Part shown: in pieces, positions 30,429-36,912 of the stretch
Numbering within the stretch: the stretch's first letter is position 1
Layout of the letters: the number at the start of each line of letters is the position of its first letter
Origin: an uncultured Pirellulaceae bacterium
GTDB lineage: Bacteria > Planctomycetota > Planctomycetia > Pirellulales > Pirellulaceae
Direction: 5' to 3'
Length of the DNA: 64,000 bases
Assembly (NCBI GenBank): GCA_937981585.1
Contig: CALJOA010000027.1
Location: 32,385 to 96,384, forward strand
The notes under the pieces: model-generated
Told to the model about the DNA's origin: nothing
The model's database searches: none
What the model saw: the letters and a program-made list of their open reading frames with translations, nothing else
Position numbers and translations under genes: made by a program

Positions 30429-30857
30429 GAAGCTTCTAAGAAAAATTTAAGGGATATCGATGAAATAGGTCACCAATCAGGACGATTGTTATAGCAAACA
30501 AAGTTTGGTCAAGCCGTCTTCAAGCCTTCAGTTCTTGGTTCTTGATTGAAATTCTCTGCAAAGAGCGACCCAACCTGATTGTGACCAGCGACGACAACGT
30601 CGCACGTCAAAAAAACGACGTCAACGATCGTCTATCCGTCAGCAAGTGCCAATATTAAGAAATCGACAAAAGCCTGTAAGTTATCGCTCTTGAGCGTGTC
30701 AAAGAGTAAGCCCGGTAAGGCCATGGTTTTCTGGGTTTAGTAAACAAGCAATCTGGTTGAAGCCCGCTGTGAAAGCCGACACTGAATTGACAGTGATAGC
30801 ATGAGCTTTCGAAACGGTTTGGCAATCTAAGTTTTCAAAATAGCTGGTTTGGTTTTA
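30429..30857. other. Intergenic region between prfB and the DUF547 gene
   Basis: This 429-base divergent region must contain promoters for both genes. No repeat, RNA gene or confident promoter hexamer pair was recognised. Confidence 0.45.
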
Positions 30858-32006
30858 ATGATTTCAGAACGAAGACTGTTGTTAGTTGCCGGACTTTTAC
30901 TTGCTGCAAGTTCTCCATGTTTGGGATATCAATCGGGAAGTCGAAGCGCAGGACCGAGTGGAGGCTTGGGAACACAGGTTTTTGTCCCGTCTGTCGCCTC
31001 ACCTTCATTCTCGGCGCCTCAATCCGTGATTTCTGCACCACATAACTTTGCCGCACCAGCACCTGTTGGCTCGGTCTTGCAAACGCCGGTTACTGAGTTT
31101 ATGCCCGCTCAACCTTCGTTCCAGTATCAGGGCCAGTTGGCGTCGCCCACAGTGATTTACCAACAACCGATGCCCTATCCGACCGGCCCAACCACTCAAA
31201 CGGTGCTTCAACCCAGAAACGGTTCATCCGAGGGCTCGTCCATCGTTCCTAAGGCTTCATTGGTGGACCCGATTTTTGAAATCAATGATCCGTATTCGCC
31301 TTATGCTGTAGATCACTCCACTTGGGACTGCCTGCTGGCTCGGTATCTGGTGTCCGACTCAACAGGCGTCAATCGGCTTCGATATAGCCGTGTCACGGCT
31401 CAGGATCGAAACGGACTCAAGAGCTACCTTCGTTACTTGCAATCTATCGACACGCGAACGCTTAACCGTCACGAGCAGTTGGCCTTCTGGTTCAATCTCT
31501 ATAACGCTCGAACCGTCGACATCGTGCTGGATAACTTCCCGATTCGTTCGATTCGTCAGGTCAAAACAAAGTTCACCGATTTTGTCGGACCGTTCGACGA
31601 CCCTGGAGCCGTCAACGTTTTGGGTAAGCCACTATCACTCAACGATATCGAAAGTGGAATTATTAGGCCGGTTTGGAAAGATCCTCGAATTCACTACGCG
31701 CTCAATTGCGCTTCTTATGGCTGTCCCAACTTGGCACCAAGAGCTTGGACGGCAGCGAATCTGGATTCCCAGCTCAACGGCGCCGCTTATGAATACATTA
31801 ACTCCAACCGAGCAATTCGCCGTGGCGTCCTCGGAGTCAAAGTGTCCAAAATTTTCAAATGGTACAAAGCCGACTTTGGCGGAAATGATGAAGCCGTTTT
31901 GAATCACCTCAGACAATACGCTAACACCACCACGCAACAGAAACTCTCTGGTCAACGCAACATCCGAGGTTACTTTTACAATTGGTCGTTAAACGCCGCG
32001 AGATAG
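30858..32006 (+). CDS. Secreted DUF547 protein
   Basis: This 382-residue protein has a signal peptide (MISERRLLLVAGLLLAASSPCLG). A Pro/Ser/Gln-rich spacer (about 24-125) follows, then a DUF547 domain (about 150-340). DUF547 hallmarks are NRHEQLAFWFNLYNA and HYALNCASYGCPNL. The ATG at 30858 was chosen over a TTG three codons upstream. DUF547 proteins resemble transglutaminase/papain-like folds, and the conserved Cys and His of the NCASYGCP region may be active-site residues, but the function is not established. Confidence 0.85.
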   Translation: MISERRLLLVAGLLLAASSPCLGYQSGSRSAGPSGGLGTQVFVPSVASPSFSAPQSVISAPHNFAAPAPVGSVLQTPVTEFMPAQPSFQYQGQLASPTVIYQQPMPYPTGPTTQTVLQPRNGSSEGSSIVPKASLVDPIFEINDPYSPYAVDHSTWDCLLARYLVSDSTGVNRLRYSRVTAQDRNGLKSYLRYLQSIDTRTLNRHEQLAFWFNLYNARTVDIVLDNFPIRSIRQVKTKFTDFVGPFDDPGAVNVLGKPLSLNDIESGIIRPVWKDPRIHYALNCASYGCPNLAPRAWTAANLDSQLNGAAYEYINSNRAIRRGVLGVKVSKIFKWYKADFGGNDEAVLNHLRQYANTTTQQKLSGQRNIRGYFYNWSLNAAR

Positions 32007-32175: not shown

Positions 32176-33645
32176 ATGACGCAGCTTCCCATCTATACCC
32201 CACGCTCTGCATCCAACTCCGTTGCTGATCAGGATCCTATCGGCATGGACGAAAGTAACCTGGCCGATTTTGGCACCGGCCAGTTTATTAAGAAAACAAC
32301 CAGCATCTGTCCCGTTTGCCTCAATAAAATTGACGCTTCGGTTTACGAGCGAGGCGACGCGGTTTTCATGGACAAACAATGTGCTGAGCACGGTCGCTAC
32401 TCAGCGATGCTGGCCTCCGAGCGACGGCATTACTACGTTGCCGATCCCAACATCGAATCGCTGGCCTGTTGTTGTGGCCCTGGACAACATTGCGGCGACC
32501 AAGTCGAAAATCACAGCTGCAACATGCTGCTGGAAATCACCCAAAGCTGCAATTTGACCTGCCCGACGTGCTACGCTGGGTCATCGCCTCAAAACAAGTC
32601 CTTCATGTCGGTCGAAAAATTCACCTCGACCCTCGATGGACTGCTCGAAAAAGGTAAAGGCGATGCGGACCTGATTCAGCTTTCGGGCGGCGAGCCAACG
32701 ATCCATCCCGACTTTTTTGAGATCGTCGAAATCGCCTTGGAGAAAGGGATCAAGCAGGTTTATATCAACACCAACGCGATCAAACTCTCGCGACGGGAAT
32801 TTGCCGAGCGAGTTTCCAGCTACGGCAATCGCGTTTCGGTGTACCTGCAGTTTGATGGCTTCAAACCGTCGACTTATGAACTCCTGCGTGGTCGCGAAGA
32901 TCTTTTGGAAACCAAAATCCGCGCTGCCGATCACTGTGAAGAGCTTGGTATCAACACCGTTCCGACAATGACGTTGACGCGGGAGATCAATGATGACGAA
33001 GTGGGCAAGTTCATCGAATGGGCTTCGTCGCGTCCCCGAAGTGTCCGAAAAGTCATGATTCAACCAGCAATGTACTCCGGTCGCTACGACAATCCCCGCT
33101 TGATCGAGCGGATGACGGTTGCCGATGTGGTCAATAAAATTTGCGATCAGACCGGCGGGATATTTTCAGCAGACGACTTCACTCCGATTCCATGCTCGGA
33201 CCCCAACTGCTTCAGCCTTGGCGTAGCGGTTCGTGGTAAAGACGGATTGCTGCCGATCTCGCGTTATCTGCCCCGCTACAAGGATTGGGCGTCTCCCGCA
33301 AATCAACAAATGATTGCTGCGGTTTCGGACACGTTTGACAGCGCAAGTACTTTCGCAGATTTAATGGGTAAAGTGGTCGCCAGTGATGCACTTTCGGGTC
33401 TCGACGACTCAGCACTGGACGCTTTGCTGGACCTAGTCGAAGAACTACCTCAAGAATCCGCCGACAGCCACGATCCTCAAAACTGGAACGGGATGTTTGC
33501 AATCGGGATCAAGCCGTTTATGGACGCCTACTCCTACGATCAGGATCGCATCGACAAGTGCTGTGTCCACATCATATCGGCTGACGGAACCCCCGTGTCC
33601 TTCTGCGAATACAACGCGGTGAACCGGCCGAGAGGAAACATGTAG
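32176..33645 (+). CDS. Radical SAM enzyme of the COG1964 type
   Basis: This 489-residue radical SAM protein has the 4Fe-4S motif CNLTCPTC (Cys125, Cys129, Cys132). An N-terminal metal-knuckle region comes first: CPVC at 45-48, Cys69 in CAEHG, then a Cys-rich patch CCCGPGQHC near 98-106. C-terminal conserved cysteines appear in PIPCSDPNC and DKCCVH. This arrangement matches the COG1964 group, which includes the methanogen MJ0619 methylase and archaeal tetraether-lipid synthase. Substrate is unknown; those relatives act on pterins or lipids. A methyltransferase gene follows after 90 bases, then an RND transporter, all co-directional. Pairings of such radical SAM proteins with a methyltransferase are known in other bacteria. 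Confidence 0.85.
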   Translation: MTQLPIYTPRSASNSVADQDPIGMDESNLADFGTGQFIKKTTSICPVCLNKIDASVYERGDAVFMDKQCAEHGRYSAMLASERRHYYVADPNIESLACCCGPGQHCGDQVENHSCNMLLEITQSCNLTCPTCYAGSSPQNKSFMSVEKFTSTLDGLLEKGKGDADLIQLSGGEPTIHPDFFEIVEIALEKGIKQVYINTNAIKLSRREFAERVSSYGNRVSVYLQFDGFKPSTYELLRGREDLLETKIRAADHCEELGINTVPTMTLTREINDDEVGKFIEWASSRPRSVRKVMIQPAMYSGRYDNPRLIERMTVADVVNKICDQTGGIFSADDFTPIPCSDPNCFSLGVAVRGKDGLLPISRYLPRYKDWASPANQQMIAAVSDTFDSASTFADLMGKVVASDALSGLDDSALDALLDLVEELPQESADSHDPQNWNGMFAIGIKPFMDAYSYDQDRIDKCCVHIISADGTPVSFCEYNAVNRPRGNM

Positions 33646-33735
33646 GGGCAAACAAGAGGAGGTCTCCGATCCATCGCCCCATCCCTTTGAACCTACAACA
33701 ATCTTCCCAATTCGATCAACCACGGAAACCCGTCC

Positions 33736-34653
33736 ATGAACGAGCAAAACGCACCAGCCACCAATGACTGCGGAGAAAATAGTACAGCGATGTGTTGCGC
33801 CAACTTTTACGAGCAAGATATCGTTCAGGAACTGATGGGAGGGAGCTTTCACCCTGGCGGGGCTGACCTGTCGCGAAGGGTTGTGGAAAGCCTGGCCCTG
33901 AGTCCTGGCCAATCGGTTTTGGATGTGGCTTGCGGTGTTGGTACGACGGCTAGGATGATGGCTGGCGATTTTGGATTGCACGCAACCGGGCTCGACTTCA
34001 GCCAGCTCAATGTTGACAAAGCTCGAAACTCGGCTGATCAACCAGTCCCGACCACCCAACCGTGCTGTGCTCCCGGAGAAACCTGCTGCACGCCTGAACT
34101 GGCTACGCTGGGTGAAAAATCCAGCGGCCAATCAGAAACGCCACCGGCTGGTTCGTCCAAGTTCATCCGTGGTTCCGCCGATGCAATGGGGCTCGATAAT
34201 GAGAGCTTTGACGGACTAACGTGCGAGTGTGCCGTTAGCACATTTGCCGATCAAGCGGCTGTGGCGAGCGAGTTTTTTCGAGTTCTCAAACCTCATGGCG
34301 TCTTTGCAATGACTGACATGGTCGTCAACGCCGAGCTACCCGGTGACTTTGCTGAGAAAGCTGCACCCTGGACCTGCGTTGCCAAGGCGCTTTCGATCGC
34401 TGGCTATCAAGAGCTCTTTGAAGCAGCGGGTTTCGAATTGGTCACCAACGAAGACCATTCCCACACACTGCTGAATTTGGCGACCGAAATGAAGCGTAAG
34501 CTGGTGATGGCGGGCATGGGCAAAGCCCTGGGGGCGTTGCCAGCGTTGGGAATGAATCTGCGCGAAATGCGAGCGATGCTGACCCAGTCAACCGAACTGG
34601 TGAAAGCCGAAACGATTCAGTACGGCTTGTTGCTGTTCAAAAAGCCTGCTTGA
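33736..34653 (+). CDS. Cys-rich SAM-dependent methyltransferase
   Basis: This class I methyltransferase has 305 residues. The SAM-binding motif VLDVACGVGTTARM (about 61-74) and LDFSQ (86-90) are clear. Unusual features are paired cysteines at 20-21, 110-111 and 117-118, the latter two pairs in an insertion of about 40 residues between the second and third strands of the Rossmann fold (about 100-142). The N-terminal SFHPGGADLSRR resembles methyltransferases found beside radical SAM proteins. CC pairs suggest metal or arsenic-type thiophilic ligand binding; an ArsM-like activity is an alternative, not demonstrated. It lies between the radical SAM gene and the transporter gene. Confidence 0.82.
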   Translation: MNEQNAPATNDCGENSTAMCCANFYEQDIVQELMGGSFHPGGADLSRRVVESLALSPGQSVLDVACGVGTTARMMAGDFGLHATGLDFSQLNVDKARNSADQPVPTTQPCCAPGETCCTPELATLGEKSSGQSETPPAGSSKFIRGSADAMGLDNESFDGLTCECAVSTFADQAAVASEFFRVLKPHGVFAMTDMVVNAELPGDFAEKAAPWTCVAKALSIAGYQELFEAAGFELVTNEDHSHTLLNLATEMKRKLVMAGMGKALGALPALGMNLREMRAMLTQSTELVKAETIQYGLLLFKKPA

Positions 34654-34656
34654 TTC

Positions 34657-36912
34657 ATGCGCGAAAAAATCCTTCTCGCTCTGTTCGTATTGACGTTTCC
34701 GGTGGTGGCTTATGTTTCGACGCTCCCGCCCCAACGTTTCCGCAATGAGATCACCCAATGGGGTGACCTCAATTCGATAGCGTTCCAACAATTCAAAGAC
34801 TATCGCGAAAAGTTTGGCACCAACGAAGCGATCATTCTAAGCTGGCCAGGTTGTGTACTGAACGATCCGCGCGTCGAAAAAGTCACCACCGGAATTGAGA
34901 CGAAACTTAAAAGCAAAGTCCGGAACGTCAGCAGCGGTCAACAAGCCTATTGGGCTCTGGTTGATGATGCCAAGCTATCCGAAGCAACGGCTTTGAAGCG
35001 CCTGAAGAATGTTATGGTCGGTGCCGATGGCAAAGCGACTGCCGTCGGGTTTCAACTAACCCAAACCGCACGACAGAACCGAGGTGAAGTTGTAGCGCAA
35101 CTGGACGAGATTCTAAAATCAGCCGGCGTTGATCCCGGCGAAACGATCTACGCAGGACTCGGACACAACCTCTACACGATGGACAAAGAGGGATTGGAGT
35201 CCCCATTTCGCATGGTGCCACAGATCATGTTGCTGGCCTTTGTTTTGACAATCCTGTTTGTCCGCAACATCTGGCTGGCTTTTTTTATCAATGCTTTGGG
35301 AACTTACACCGGATGCCTCGCATTCAACATCGTCTGGCTCGCTGATGTCGATATGAACGCGATCATTTGGCCGTTGCCAACGCTGTCGATGCTGCTAACA
35401 GTTTCGGCGTCGCTGCATTTTTTGAGTTACTTCAGAAAATCGGCAGAGTCATTGGGCGAACCGGTAGGCGCTGAGACCGAACCCGATCCGCTGGCATGGC
35501 GACGGATGGTTGCGACCGACGCAGTACGTCGATCAATCAAGCCAATTCTGTACTGCACGGCAACCACGGCCATTGGACTATTGTCGTTAATGCTCAGTAC
35601 TAGTGAGCCAATTCGACAGTTCGGGCGCTTTGGAGCACTCTCAATTCTGGCTGGCAACCTTTTGCTGCTGGTTTGGTTTCCGGCTTGGCTGACGCTGATC
35701 GGTTACGCCACGAGAGTCAAACGGGAAAGTCTGAACTCGCCAATGACGAAACAACCCGGCAGTCTTTTTTTGACTGGCCGAAACGACGGTTGGCAACGTT
35801 GGTCAAATCTTACTCGACGCGGACGTTGGCCGATCGTGGGATTTTGTTTTCTCGCGTTGGTGGTTGGTGCTTTAGGGATTCCCAAAGTCAAAACCGGCAG
35901 TGAACTGTCGAACTTTTTTCCATCGGGCCACCACGTGTTGACGTCCGCAACTGAGATGGAGGCGCGTGTTGGGCCTTTGAATACGGTCGAGTTGTTACTC
36001 CATTTCGAAGAAGCCGACCCTGAGAACGACCGACTGAGGTTGCTGGGATTGCGGTCTTTGGAACGTCGTATTGAATCGGAAACCAATTTTGAGTCCTGTC
36101 TGTCGGCAGCTACGTTCGCCCCCAACTTCAAGCACGAGCGTGCTGGGCTGCGCAAGAGTGTGGAAAAGTCACGCCAAGCAAGGTTCAAGGAAAACGTCGT
36201 GGCCGCCGGATTGGTACACAAAGACGAAAATAGCCGCCAAGAGACATGGCGCATTTCGTGCCGCTACTCGGTTTCGAGCGAATTTGATTTGGCCCAGGAA
36301 ACAAAGCGGCTCAAGCGAATTACCAACGAATTATTCGTTCGCGACGGCCAAGTGGTTCTGCCCGGCGAATCACTGACGACGACCGTGACTGGCGAGTTTG
36401 TGTTGTTCGACTTTGTCGATAGGCAGTTTTTCAAAGAATTGCTGCTGACCTATTTTGCCGCTTTCGTGATTATCTCGCTGATGGTTTTATGCGTGCTGAG
36501 AAGCTTCAAATCAGCATTGGTCGCGTTGTTGCCAAACTTGTTTCCGGCGCTCGTTGTGCTGGGGATGGCAGGTTTCTGCGGATTCTCGCTGGACGTCGCT
36601 TCGTTAACCACCGCCAGTGTGGCGTTAGGCATCGCGGTGGATGACACATTGCATTTTCTTTTGTGGCATCAGGAGTCTTCAAAACGAAACGAAAAAGAAC
36701 CGCTCTGTTGGGCACTAAAATATTGCGGCACCGCGATGATGCAGACCAGCATGATCCTGGGTTTGAGCATCGTGCTTTATGCATTCTGCGGATTCCTACC
36801 GACGGTTCGTTTCGGAATCCTACTCTCTGCCATGATGTTTGCGGCGCTGGTCGGCGACCTCCTGTTGCTCCCGGCGTTGATGGCGATGAAGCAACCGGTG
36901 CCCAAATCTTAG
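34657..36912 (+). CDS. RND/MMPL-family membrane transporter
   Basis: This 751-residue RND-superfamily protein of the MMPL/HpnN-like type carries lipid- or hydrophobic-cargo exporters as known members. An N-terminal TM (about 3-20) precedes a large extracytoplasmic loop. A cluster of hydrophobic spans follows (about 185-345), then a second loop (about 425-590) and a second cluster (about 595-745) with the RND-typical SVALGIAVDDTLHFLLW motif. It starts 3 bases after the methyltransferase stop and is almost certainly translated with it. No membrane-fusion or outer-membrane partner is adjacent. Confidence 0.87.
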   Translation: MREKILLALFVLTFPVVAYVSTLPPQRFRNEITQWGDLNSIAFQQFKDYREKFGTNEAIILSWPGCVLNDPRVEKVTTGIETKLKSKVRNVSSGQQAYWALVDDAKLSEATALKRLKNVMVGADGKATAVGFQLTQTARQNRGEVVAQLDEILKSAGVDPGETIYAGLGHNLYTMDKEGLESPFRMVPQIMLLAFVLTILFVRNIWLAFFINALGTYTGCLAFNIVWLADVDMNAIIWPLPTLSMLLTVSASLHFLSYFRKSAESLGEPVGAETEPDPLAWRRMVATDAVRRSIKPILYCTATTAIGLLSLMLSTSEPIRQFGRFGALSILAGNLLLLVWFPAWLTLIGYATRVKRESLNSPMTKQPGSLFLTGRNDGWQRWSNLTRRGRWPIVGFCFLALVVGALGIPKVKTGSELSNFFPSGHHVLTSATEMEARVGPLNTVELLLHFEEADPENDRLRLLGLRSLERRIESETNFESCLSAATFAPNFKHERAGLRKSVEKSRQARFKENVVAAGLVHKDENSRQETWRISCRYSVSSEFDLAQETKRLKRITNELFVRDGQVVLPGESLTTTVTGEFVLFDFVDRQFFKELLLTYFAAFVIISLMVLCVLRSFKSALVALLPNLFPALVVLGMAGFCGFSLDVASLTTASVALGIAVDDTLHFLLWHQESSKRNEKEPLCWALKYCGTAMMQTSMILGLSIVLYAFCGFLPTVRFGILLSAMMFAALVGDLLLLPALMAMKQPVPKS

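What the first reader, a model, noticed from the sequence alone, without database searches (positions are those of the whole stretch)
32176..36912. COG1964 radical SAM enzyme, Cys-rich methyltransferase and RND transporter form one transcription unit
Seen: three co-directional genes with 90- and 3-base gaps. The radical SAM protein has Cys125/129/132 and an N-terminal CPVC/CAEHG metal region. Known: COG1964 includes MJ0619 (pterin methylase) and archaeal tetraether-lipid synthase; MMPL/HpnN transporters move hydrophobic cargo. Inference: this could be an uncharacterised lipid- or thiol/metalloid-modifying pathway with export. Two radical-type readings compete: lipid C-C coupling with export, or a detoxifying methylation (arsenic/selenium).
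Basis: partly seen in the sequence, partly recalled or inferred. Interest (0 to 1): 0.7.

Follow-up and report, generated by a model that had tools for sequence, protein, structure and literature searches.

The report
Predicted organoarsenical-making enzyme pair with exporter
Neighbouring genes in a planctomycete bacterium encode a radical-SAM enzyme, a methyltransferase carrying the two cysteines that arsenic methylases use to hold arsenic, and a membrane transporter; together they would likely build and export a carbon-bonded arsenic (or similar) compound, which would add a third radical-SAM family to the two known to make such bonds.

The parts
30849..32006 (+). DUF547 protein (385 aa, TTG start as listed), first gene of the unit
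   Evidence: ORF; PF04784 86.6 bits, cut-off 27; same place in L002-L005
32176..33645 (+). COG1964 radical-SAM enzyme (489 aa)
   Evidence: PF04055 and PF23545; nearest solved structure tetraether lipid synthase
32308..32391 (+). rubredoxin-like metal site C45-x2-C48-x20-C69-x2-H72
   Evidence: three Cys invariant, His nearly so, in alignment A2; same spacing as in PMC9433317
32548..32571 (+). radical-SAM motif C125-x3-C129-x2-C132
   Evidence: invariant in 32 of 32 aligned
33193..33210 (+). CSDPNC: Cys340 (Ser in M. jannaschii tetraether synthase) and Cys345 (beyond the stretch aligned to it)
   Evidence: invariant in 32 of 32; alignment to 7tol
33559..33606 (+). C-terminal cluster cysteines C462, C463, C477
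   Evidence: invariant in 32 of 32; also in 7tol
33736..34653 (+). ArsM-like / DVU_1556-like SAM methyltransferase (305 aa)
   Evidence: NF045667 140.5 bits (cut-off 155), NF008823 arsenite methyltransferase 77.5 (cut-off 263)
33793..33798 (+). Cys20-Cys21, same place as the N-terminal CC of ArsS-linked ArsM proteins
33850..33861 (+). His39-Pro-Gly-Gly, at or next to the third ArsM cysteine
   Evidence: invariant 36 of 36; alignment with ArsM
34063..34089 (+). Cys-rich insert CCAPGETCC, seen in near relatives
   Evidence: alignment A1
34222..34230 (+). Cys163-Glu-Cys165; Cys165 = As(III)-binding Cys of ArsM (CmArsM 174)
34375..34377 (+). Cys214 = As(III)-binding Cys of ArsM (CmArsM 224)
34657..36912 (+). 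MMPL/RND (HAE3-like) transporter (751 aa), dedicated family
   Evidence: PF03176 54.9 bits, cut-off 20.5; 88 homologs at 41% identity or more, then a drop to 29% and below

Best explanation
The unit encodes a COG1964 radical-SAM enzyme, an ArsM-like methyltransferase and an RND transporter that likely work as an organometalloid pathway analogous to arsinothricin's ArsL-ArsM-ArsQ: the radical-SAM enzyme would form a carbon bond to a thiophilic element (arsenic as first choice), the methyltransferase would methylate that trivalent product held by Cys165 and Cys214, and the RND protein would export it. Shown: gene order and its conservation; fold kinship of the radical-SAM enzyme; methyltransferase cysteines; recurrence of the enzyme pair in bacteria and haloarchaea; DUF547 enrichment near ArsS and its place beside this pair in two domains of life. 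Inferred: the element, the reaction order, the organic group, the exported cargo, and the role of DUF547 (possibly a thiol or redox helper).
For: Cys165 and Cys214 are invariant in 36 of 36 aligned family members and line up with the ArsM cysteines in 6 of 6 ArsM-type rows (one of the six, L088, is over its NCBIfam cut-off, the five ArsS-linked ones score best on ArsM models but below cut-off); 0 of 4 unrelated methyltransferases have both, nor do the three solved methyltransferases printed. Cys72, 174 and 224 are reported conserved for arsenite binding in the ArsM set of PMC5552862 (passages). Radical SAM with ArsM is the scheme of arsinothricin and arsenosugar synthesis, and arsinothricin's set is exporter + methyltransferase + radical SAM (PMC8552651, passages; PMC12159101, passages). 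The pair recurs: 29 of the 120 listed radical-SAM clusters share their longest contig length with a listed methyltransferase cluster, against 0-3 for lengths shifted by 1-10 bases; a mycobacterial and five haloarchaeal plasmids carry it. DUF547 is beside the pair in 5 planctomycetes and 3 of 5 haloarchaeal plasmids, and within 5.2 kb of ArsS in 14 of 60 planctomycete genomes. A MerA-like oxidoreductase similar to one in an ArsS locus is the second gene after the pair in L007.
Against: No arsR, arsB, acr3, arsP or other arsenic-resistance gene was recognised near the pair among neighbours read, annotated or scanned (10 proteins); not every neighbour was scanned. The only arsenate-reductase-like gene (Halorarius plasmid) scores 62.6 against a cut-off of 174.3. 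The DUF547 tree does not place the unit's DUF547 with ArsS-linked ones. The MerA-like gene goes with DUF547 (8 of 15 ArsS loci with DUF547 nearby) rather than with ArsS as such (0 of 8 other ArsS loci). DUF547, DUF3179, redoxin and dihydrolipoyl dehydrogenase also occur together in a haloarchaeal plasmid with no pair annotated in the stretch seen, beside sulfur-type transporters. The best solved matches of the methyltransferase model are small-molecule methyltransferases such as AtmM, and by sequence ArsM is not the best solved match (80.7 against 111.4 bits). ArsM's third cysteine is missing. The own genome already has ArsM-type and ArsS genes. The RND is absent beside the pair in L006, L007, G150 and the annotated plasmids.
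Confidence: 0.4

Rival explanations
1. Sulfur chemistry: the radical-SAM enzyme inserts sulfur from its C-terminal cluster into an organic substrate and the methyltransferase caps the thiol, giving a methylthio product that the RND exports; DUF547 partners handle thiol redox.
For: Tetraether synthase accumulates a lipid with one added sulfur atom, read as an intermediate (PMC9433317, passages); haloarchaeal DUF547 loci hold redoxin, DsrE and TauE/SafE genes.
Against: S-methylation needs no ArsM-type cysteine pair, yet it is invariant; DUF547 is strongly tied to ArsS.
Confidence: 0.25
2. Cofactor maturation: a relative of the TrsS / DVU_1556 and hydroxymethylpterin-methylase group that alters a pterin or metal cofactor for another enzyme.
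For: Best NCBIfam models are TrsS and DVU_1556; PF23545 bears the name HMPTM (its expansion to pterin methylase is recalled); the methyltransferase is fused to a CobW-type GTPase in G150.
Against: Both model cut-offs are missed and the TrsS model scores an Lgt-linked enzyme higher (355 against 277 bits); a dedicated RND pump does not suit a cofactor.
Confidence: 0.14
3. Lipid C-C coupling or radical lipid methylation with MMPL-type export.
For: Fold and metal sites of tetraether lipid synthase; MMPL transporters move hydrophobic cargo (recalled).
Against: Conserved tetraether-synthase Met439 and Tyr459 replaced; methyltransferase cysteines unexplained; COG1964 enzymes beside an Lgt-type membrane protein form other branches.
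Confidence: 0.12
4. Plain detoxification: arsenic or selenium methylation with RND efflux of the methylated product.
For: ArsM cysteines; no match to the PRK11873 arsenite methyltransferase model at E 1e-40 in the 19 genus genomes searched.
Against: The own genome does hold an ArsS-linked ArsM-type protein, which that search at that threshold passed over at 183 bits or listed under no match; leaves the radical-SAM partner without a task; no ars regulator recognised nearby.
Confidence: 0.09

Closest known systems
arsQML, arsinothricin biosynthesis (Burkholderia gladioli; PMC8552651, passages)
   Same: Adjacent radical-SAM enzyme, ArsM-type methyltransferase and membrane exporter; methyltransferase cysteines for trivalent arsenic
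   Different: ArsL is described as having a single cluster; the exporter is GntP-like, not RND; arsQML responds to arsenite and sits in an ars operon, no such context recognised here
ArsM-ArsS arsenosugar loci
   Same: Methyltransferase + radical SAM; DUF547 and MerA-like neighbours in part of them; N-terminal CC of the methyltransferase
   Different: ArsS model scores only 37 of 300 bits on the window enzyme; no glycosyltransferase read beside the unit; window DUF547 is a separate branch
TrsS (NF045646) and DVU_1556 methyltransferase (NF045667), function unknown
   Same: Best NCBIfam matches of both enzymes
   Different: Both below curated cut-off (277/490, 140.5/155)
Tetraether lipid synthase Tes / GDGT-MAS (MJ0619, 7TOL)
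   Same: Fold, rubredoxin-like site, radical-SAM and C-terminal cysteines
   Different: Below cut-off (232/450); Met439 and Tyr459 replaced; Cys340 where it has Ser
HpnN and HAE3 RND transporters
   Same: MMPL domain
   Different: Far below both family cut-offs (38/752, 79/352)

Membership tests
Tetraether lipid synthase Tes (NF045702) | score over curated cut-off 450 bits | tested here: not met
   232.1 bits
Tetraether lipid synthase Tes (NF045702) | Met439 and Tyr459, completely conserved in 1000 archaeal homologs (though variants stay active) | tested here: not met
   Lys446 (invariant 32 of 32) and Ile466
Tetraether lipid synthase Tes (NF045702) | overall fold | tested here: met
TrsS (NF045646) | score over cut-off 490 | tested here: not met
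   276.8; 0 of 392 planctomycete genomes over it
DVU_1556 methyltransferase (NF045667) | score over cut-off 155 | tested here: not met
   140.5; six other pair members 130-139
ArsM arsenite methyltransferase (NF008823) | score over cut-off 263 | tested here: not met
   77.5
ArsM arsenite methyltransferase (NF008823) | cysteines equivalent to CmArsM 174 and 224 | tested here: met
   Cys165, Cys214
ArsM arsenite methyltransferase (NF008823) | cysteine equivalent to CmArsM 72 | tested here: not met
   HPGG at or beside that column
ArsM arsenite methyltransferase (NF008823) | methylates As(III) | not testable with these tools
   needs enzyme assay
ArsS (TIGR04167) | score over cut-off 300 | tested here: not met
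   37.1
HpnN (TIGR03480) | score over cut-off 751.85 | tested here: not met
   37.9
MMPL superfamily (PF03176) | score over gathering cut-off 20.5 | tested here: met
   54.9
arsQML-type pathway | arsenite-inducible, in an ars operon | tested here: inconclusive
   no ars gene recognised among neighbours read or scanned; induction not testable here

The most novel reading that the evidence does not exclude
COG1964 is a third radical-SAM family for carbon-arsenic (or carbon-selenium/antimony) bonds, found in bacteria and haloarchaea with its own two-cysteine-plus-histidine ArsM-like methyltransferase tuned to already carbon-bonded, trivalent metalloid, and in this planctomycete clade with a dedicated RND exporter that releases an unknown organoarsenical.
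Probability: 0.33. Interest if true: 0.82.

Novelty: new variant of a known kind. Interest (0 to 1): 0.6.

Why it matters
The review seen in passages (PMC12159101) names two radical-SAM reactions that make carbon-arsenic bonds, those of arsenosugars and arsinothricin. A third family, in archaea as well as bacteria and with its own exporter in one clade, would widen organoarsenical chemistry, give a function to DVU_1556-like methyltransferases and a lead for DUF547, and show how the tetraether-synthase scaffold was turned to another substrate. It is testable with two or three genes in a laboratory strain.

Tried and rejected
TrsS kinship as a functional clue: rejected as specific, because an Lgt-linked COG1964 enzyme scores higher on that model. 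C-terminal cysteine pattern as a mark of methyltransferase-linked enzymes: rejected, since 19 Lgt-linked rows have it too. DUF547 tree to tie the unit to ArsS loci: did not support it. Viral contigs: 7 weak partial radical-SAM matches only. Gammaproteobacteria: 1 of 274 genomes at E 1e-100, the one already known. G150's order: 1 of 9, G150 itself. Promoter and terminator scan: near shuffle level. Papers: TrsS, TrsM and DVU_1556 searched together gave 641 papers with at least one term, none relevant among the 20 listed; the selenoprotein search listed 2; COG1964 with related terms listed none that holds COG1964 (10 of 45 and 2 of 2 listed); DUF547 with arsenosugar terms: none of the 10 listed of 297 holds DUF547. 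ArsM structures are not among the 50 PDB rows listed for the methyltransferase model; that absence proves nothing.

The 5.2 kb limit was set after seeing the distances; 12 of the 14 pairs lie within 2.4 kb. In one search two of six 'generic' rows were set aside: one is an ArsM by its motifs, one an antisense ORF. Of 10 plasmid records, 9 were fetched (not the M. avium one). In one search several genomes occur twice under different locus ids, flanks are short for many, and the Lgt-type gene annotated two genes before the Mycobacterium branderi enzyme fell outside the 600-base rule. In one search five rows are labelled methyltransferase-linked only through shared contig lengths.
Full report
What is there. 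The window lies in a planctomycete genome (G000, contig C27); close relatives are titled Pirellulaceae and Mariniblastus. The three genes stand as described: radical SAM 32176-33645, methyltransferase 33736-34653, RND 34657-36912, gaps 90 and 3 bases. A DUF547 gene, 30849-32006, precedes them by 169 bases. The next genes downstream are three type II/IV secretion ATPases, unrelated by reading.

Conservation. In the genus, 7 of 28 genomes have the radical-SAM ortholog at E 1e-110. The methyltransferase follows in 7 of 7. The RND follows in 6 of 7 (not in G012/L007). DUF547 precedes in 5 of 6; G013's contig begins inside the radical-SAM gene. Outside the genus the pair is kept without RND and DUF547 in a gammaproteobacterial MAG (L006) and in planctomycete G150, 1 of 391 other phylum genomes drawn at that threshold, where the methyltransferase is fused behind a CobW-type GTPase. 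So the RND is a dedicated partner of the near clade; radical SAM plus methyltransferase is the core.

A wider pairing. COG1964 enzymes on plasmids also sit directly before a methyltransferase: Mycolicibacterium vanbaalenii, Halorarius, Haloarcula halophila, Salinirubellus, Haloarcula sinaiiensis and Halalkalicoccus (in the last the radical-SAM match is in two pieces). The three methyltransferases scanned score 130-136 bits on the DVU_1556 model, cut-off 155. In three of the five haloarchaea a DUF547 gene is the divergent neighbour, and in Halorarius it lies about 9 kb away; over 72,556 plasmid records the same DUF547 query found 15 records, and its three best hits are those three. In a set of 76 radical-SAM rows (repeats included), 20 have the methyltransferase within 600 bases, 47 an Lgt-type protein, 9 neither and none both (three Lgt-type neighbours scanned, 3 of 3 are PF01790). 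On the tree the window's clade (13 rows) is wholly methyltransferase-linked with support 100/99, and the methyltransferase label needs three changes in all; the tool warns of long branches.

The methyltransferase. Of the invariant columns in 36 sequences, C20, C21, H39-P-G-G, C165 and C214 stand out. Aligned with six ArsM-type proteins, C165 and C214 fall on the two ArsM cysteines (6 of 6), C20-C21 on the N-terminal CC (5 of 6), and the third ArsM cysteine falls at or beside HPGG. Of the six, L088 is over the PRK11873 cut-off; the five ArsS-linked ones score best on the arsinothricin ArsM model, 321-368 bits against a cut-off of 500. PMC5552862 names CmArsM Cys72, 174 and 224 as integral to arsenite binding (passages); replacement of ArsM cysteines by histidines has been proposed for a Thermus enzyme (PMC8649762, passage). 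The five haloarchaeal proteins keep HPGG and both core cysteines but not the CC. A site with two cysteines and a histidine would suit a trivalent element that already carries one carbon; that step is inference. The Cys-rich insert CCAPGETCC is seen in near relatives; several outer members have a Cys-rich C-terminus instead. By fold and by sequence the best solved matches are small-molecule methyltransferases, not ArsM.

Link to arsenosugar loci. ArsS occurs in 65 of 199 planctomycete genomes at E 1e-60, the own one included (ArsM-type gene and ArsS at G000:C96). DUF547 lies within 5.2 kb of ArsS in 14 of the 60 genomes tested, 14 pairs against 0.13 expected for random placement at 5 Mb. A MerA-like oxidoreductase is present in 8 of the 15 ArsS loci with DUF547 nearby and in 0 of 8 other ArsS loci, so it goes with DUF547; L007 has one, 43% identical to that of L112, as the second gene after the pair. 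Against this: the DUF547 tree separates the unit's copies from ArsS-linked ones, and DUF547 with DUF3179, redoxin and dihydrolipoyl dehydrogenase also occurs where no such pair is annotated in the stretch seen, beside sulfur-type transporters. The shared accessory genes therefore support, but do not prove, a metalloid substrate.

Mechanism. The nearest working precedent is arsinothricin, where ArsL forms the C-As bond, ArsM methylates and ArsQ exports (PMC8552651, passages). The unit has the same three roles filled by other families. I put 0.4 on this reading, with arsenic the first choice of element, and name sulfur chemistry, cofactor maturation, lipid coupling and plain detoxification as rivals.

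Novelty. The enzymes lie next to families that NCBIfam names without a function in their titles (TrsS, DVU_1556; that both come from one Desulfovibrio neighbourhood is recalled, from no call). Searches listed no paper on this pairing. I file it as a new variant of a known kind: radical SAM with an ArsM-type methyltransferase.

Noticed in passing
L008-L022, L025, L027 and many of L037-L058 and L076-L087, L206, L210: A second COG1964 radical-SAM group is neighboured by an Lgt-type (PF01790) membrane protein in 47 of 76 rows, in Bacteroidota, Planctomycetota, a Sphingomonas and plasmids; a possible radical lipid or lipoprotein modification worth its own study.
   Followed up: partly
L072:7513-9318 (G150): The methyltransferase is fused behind a CobW/HypB/UreG-type GTPase with a GGCFCC motif, directly after the radical-SAM gene.
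   Followed up: no
planctomycete ArsS loci, e.g. L147, L148, L156, L158, L160, L161: DUF547 is a recurrent neighbour of ArsM-ArsS in planctomycetes (14 of 60 genomes), in part with a MerA-like oxidoreductase or, in L114, DUF3179; none of the 10 papers listed holds DUF547.
   Followed up: partly
L107 (G000:C96): The own genome carries an ArsM-type gene and ArsS side by side on another contig.
   Followed up: partly
P0237: A gene call that begins in what looks like the C-terminus of a COG1964 radical-SAM protein and runs in frame into the methyltransferase (compare the Mycolicibacterium enzyme), pointing to a fused enzyme.
   Followed up: no
L214 (Halorubrum salinarum plasmid): DUF547, DUF3179, two redoxin genes, TSUP and TauE/SafE transporters and dihydrolipoyl dehydrogenase cluster with no radical-SAM gene annotated in the stretch shown.
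   Followed up: no
L006:2129-5700: In the gammaproteobacterial MAG the pair lies some 4 kb from corrinoid-protein, homocysteine methyltransferase-like and trimethylamine methyltransferase-like genes, all below their curated cut-offs.
   Followed up: partly
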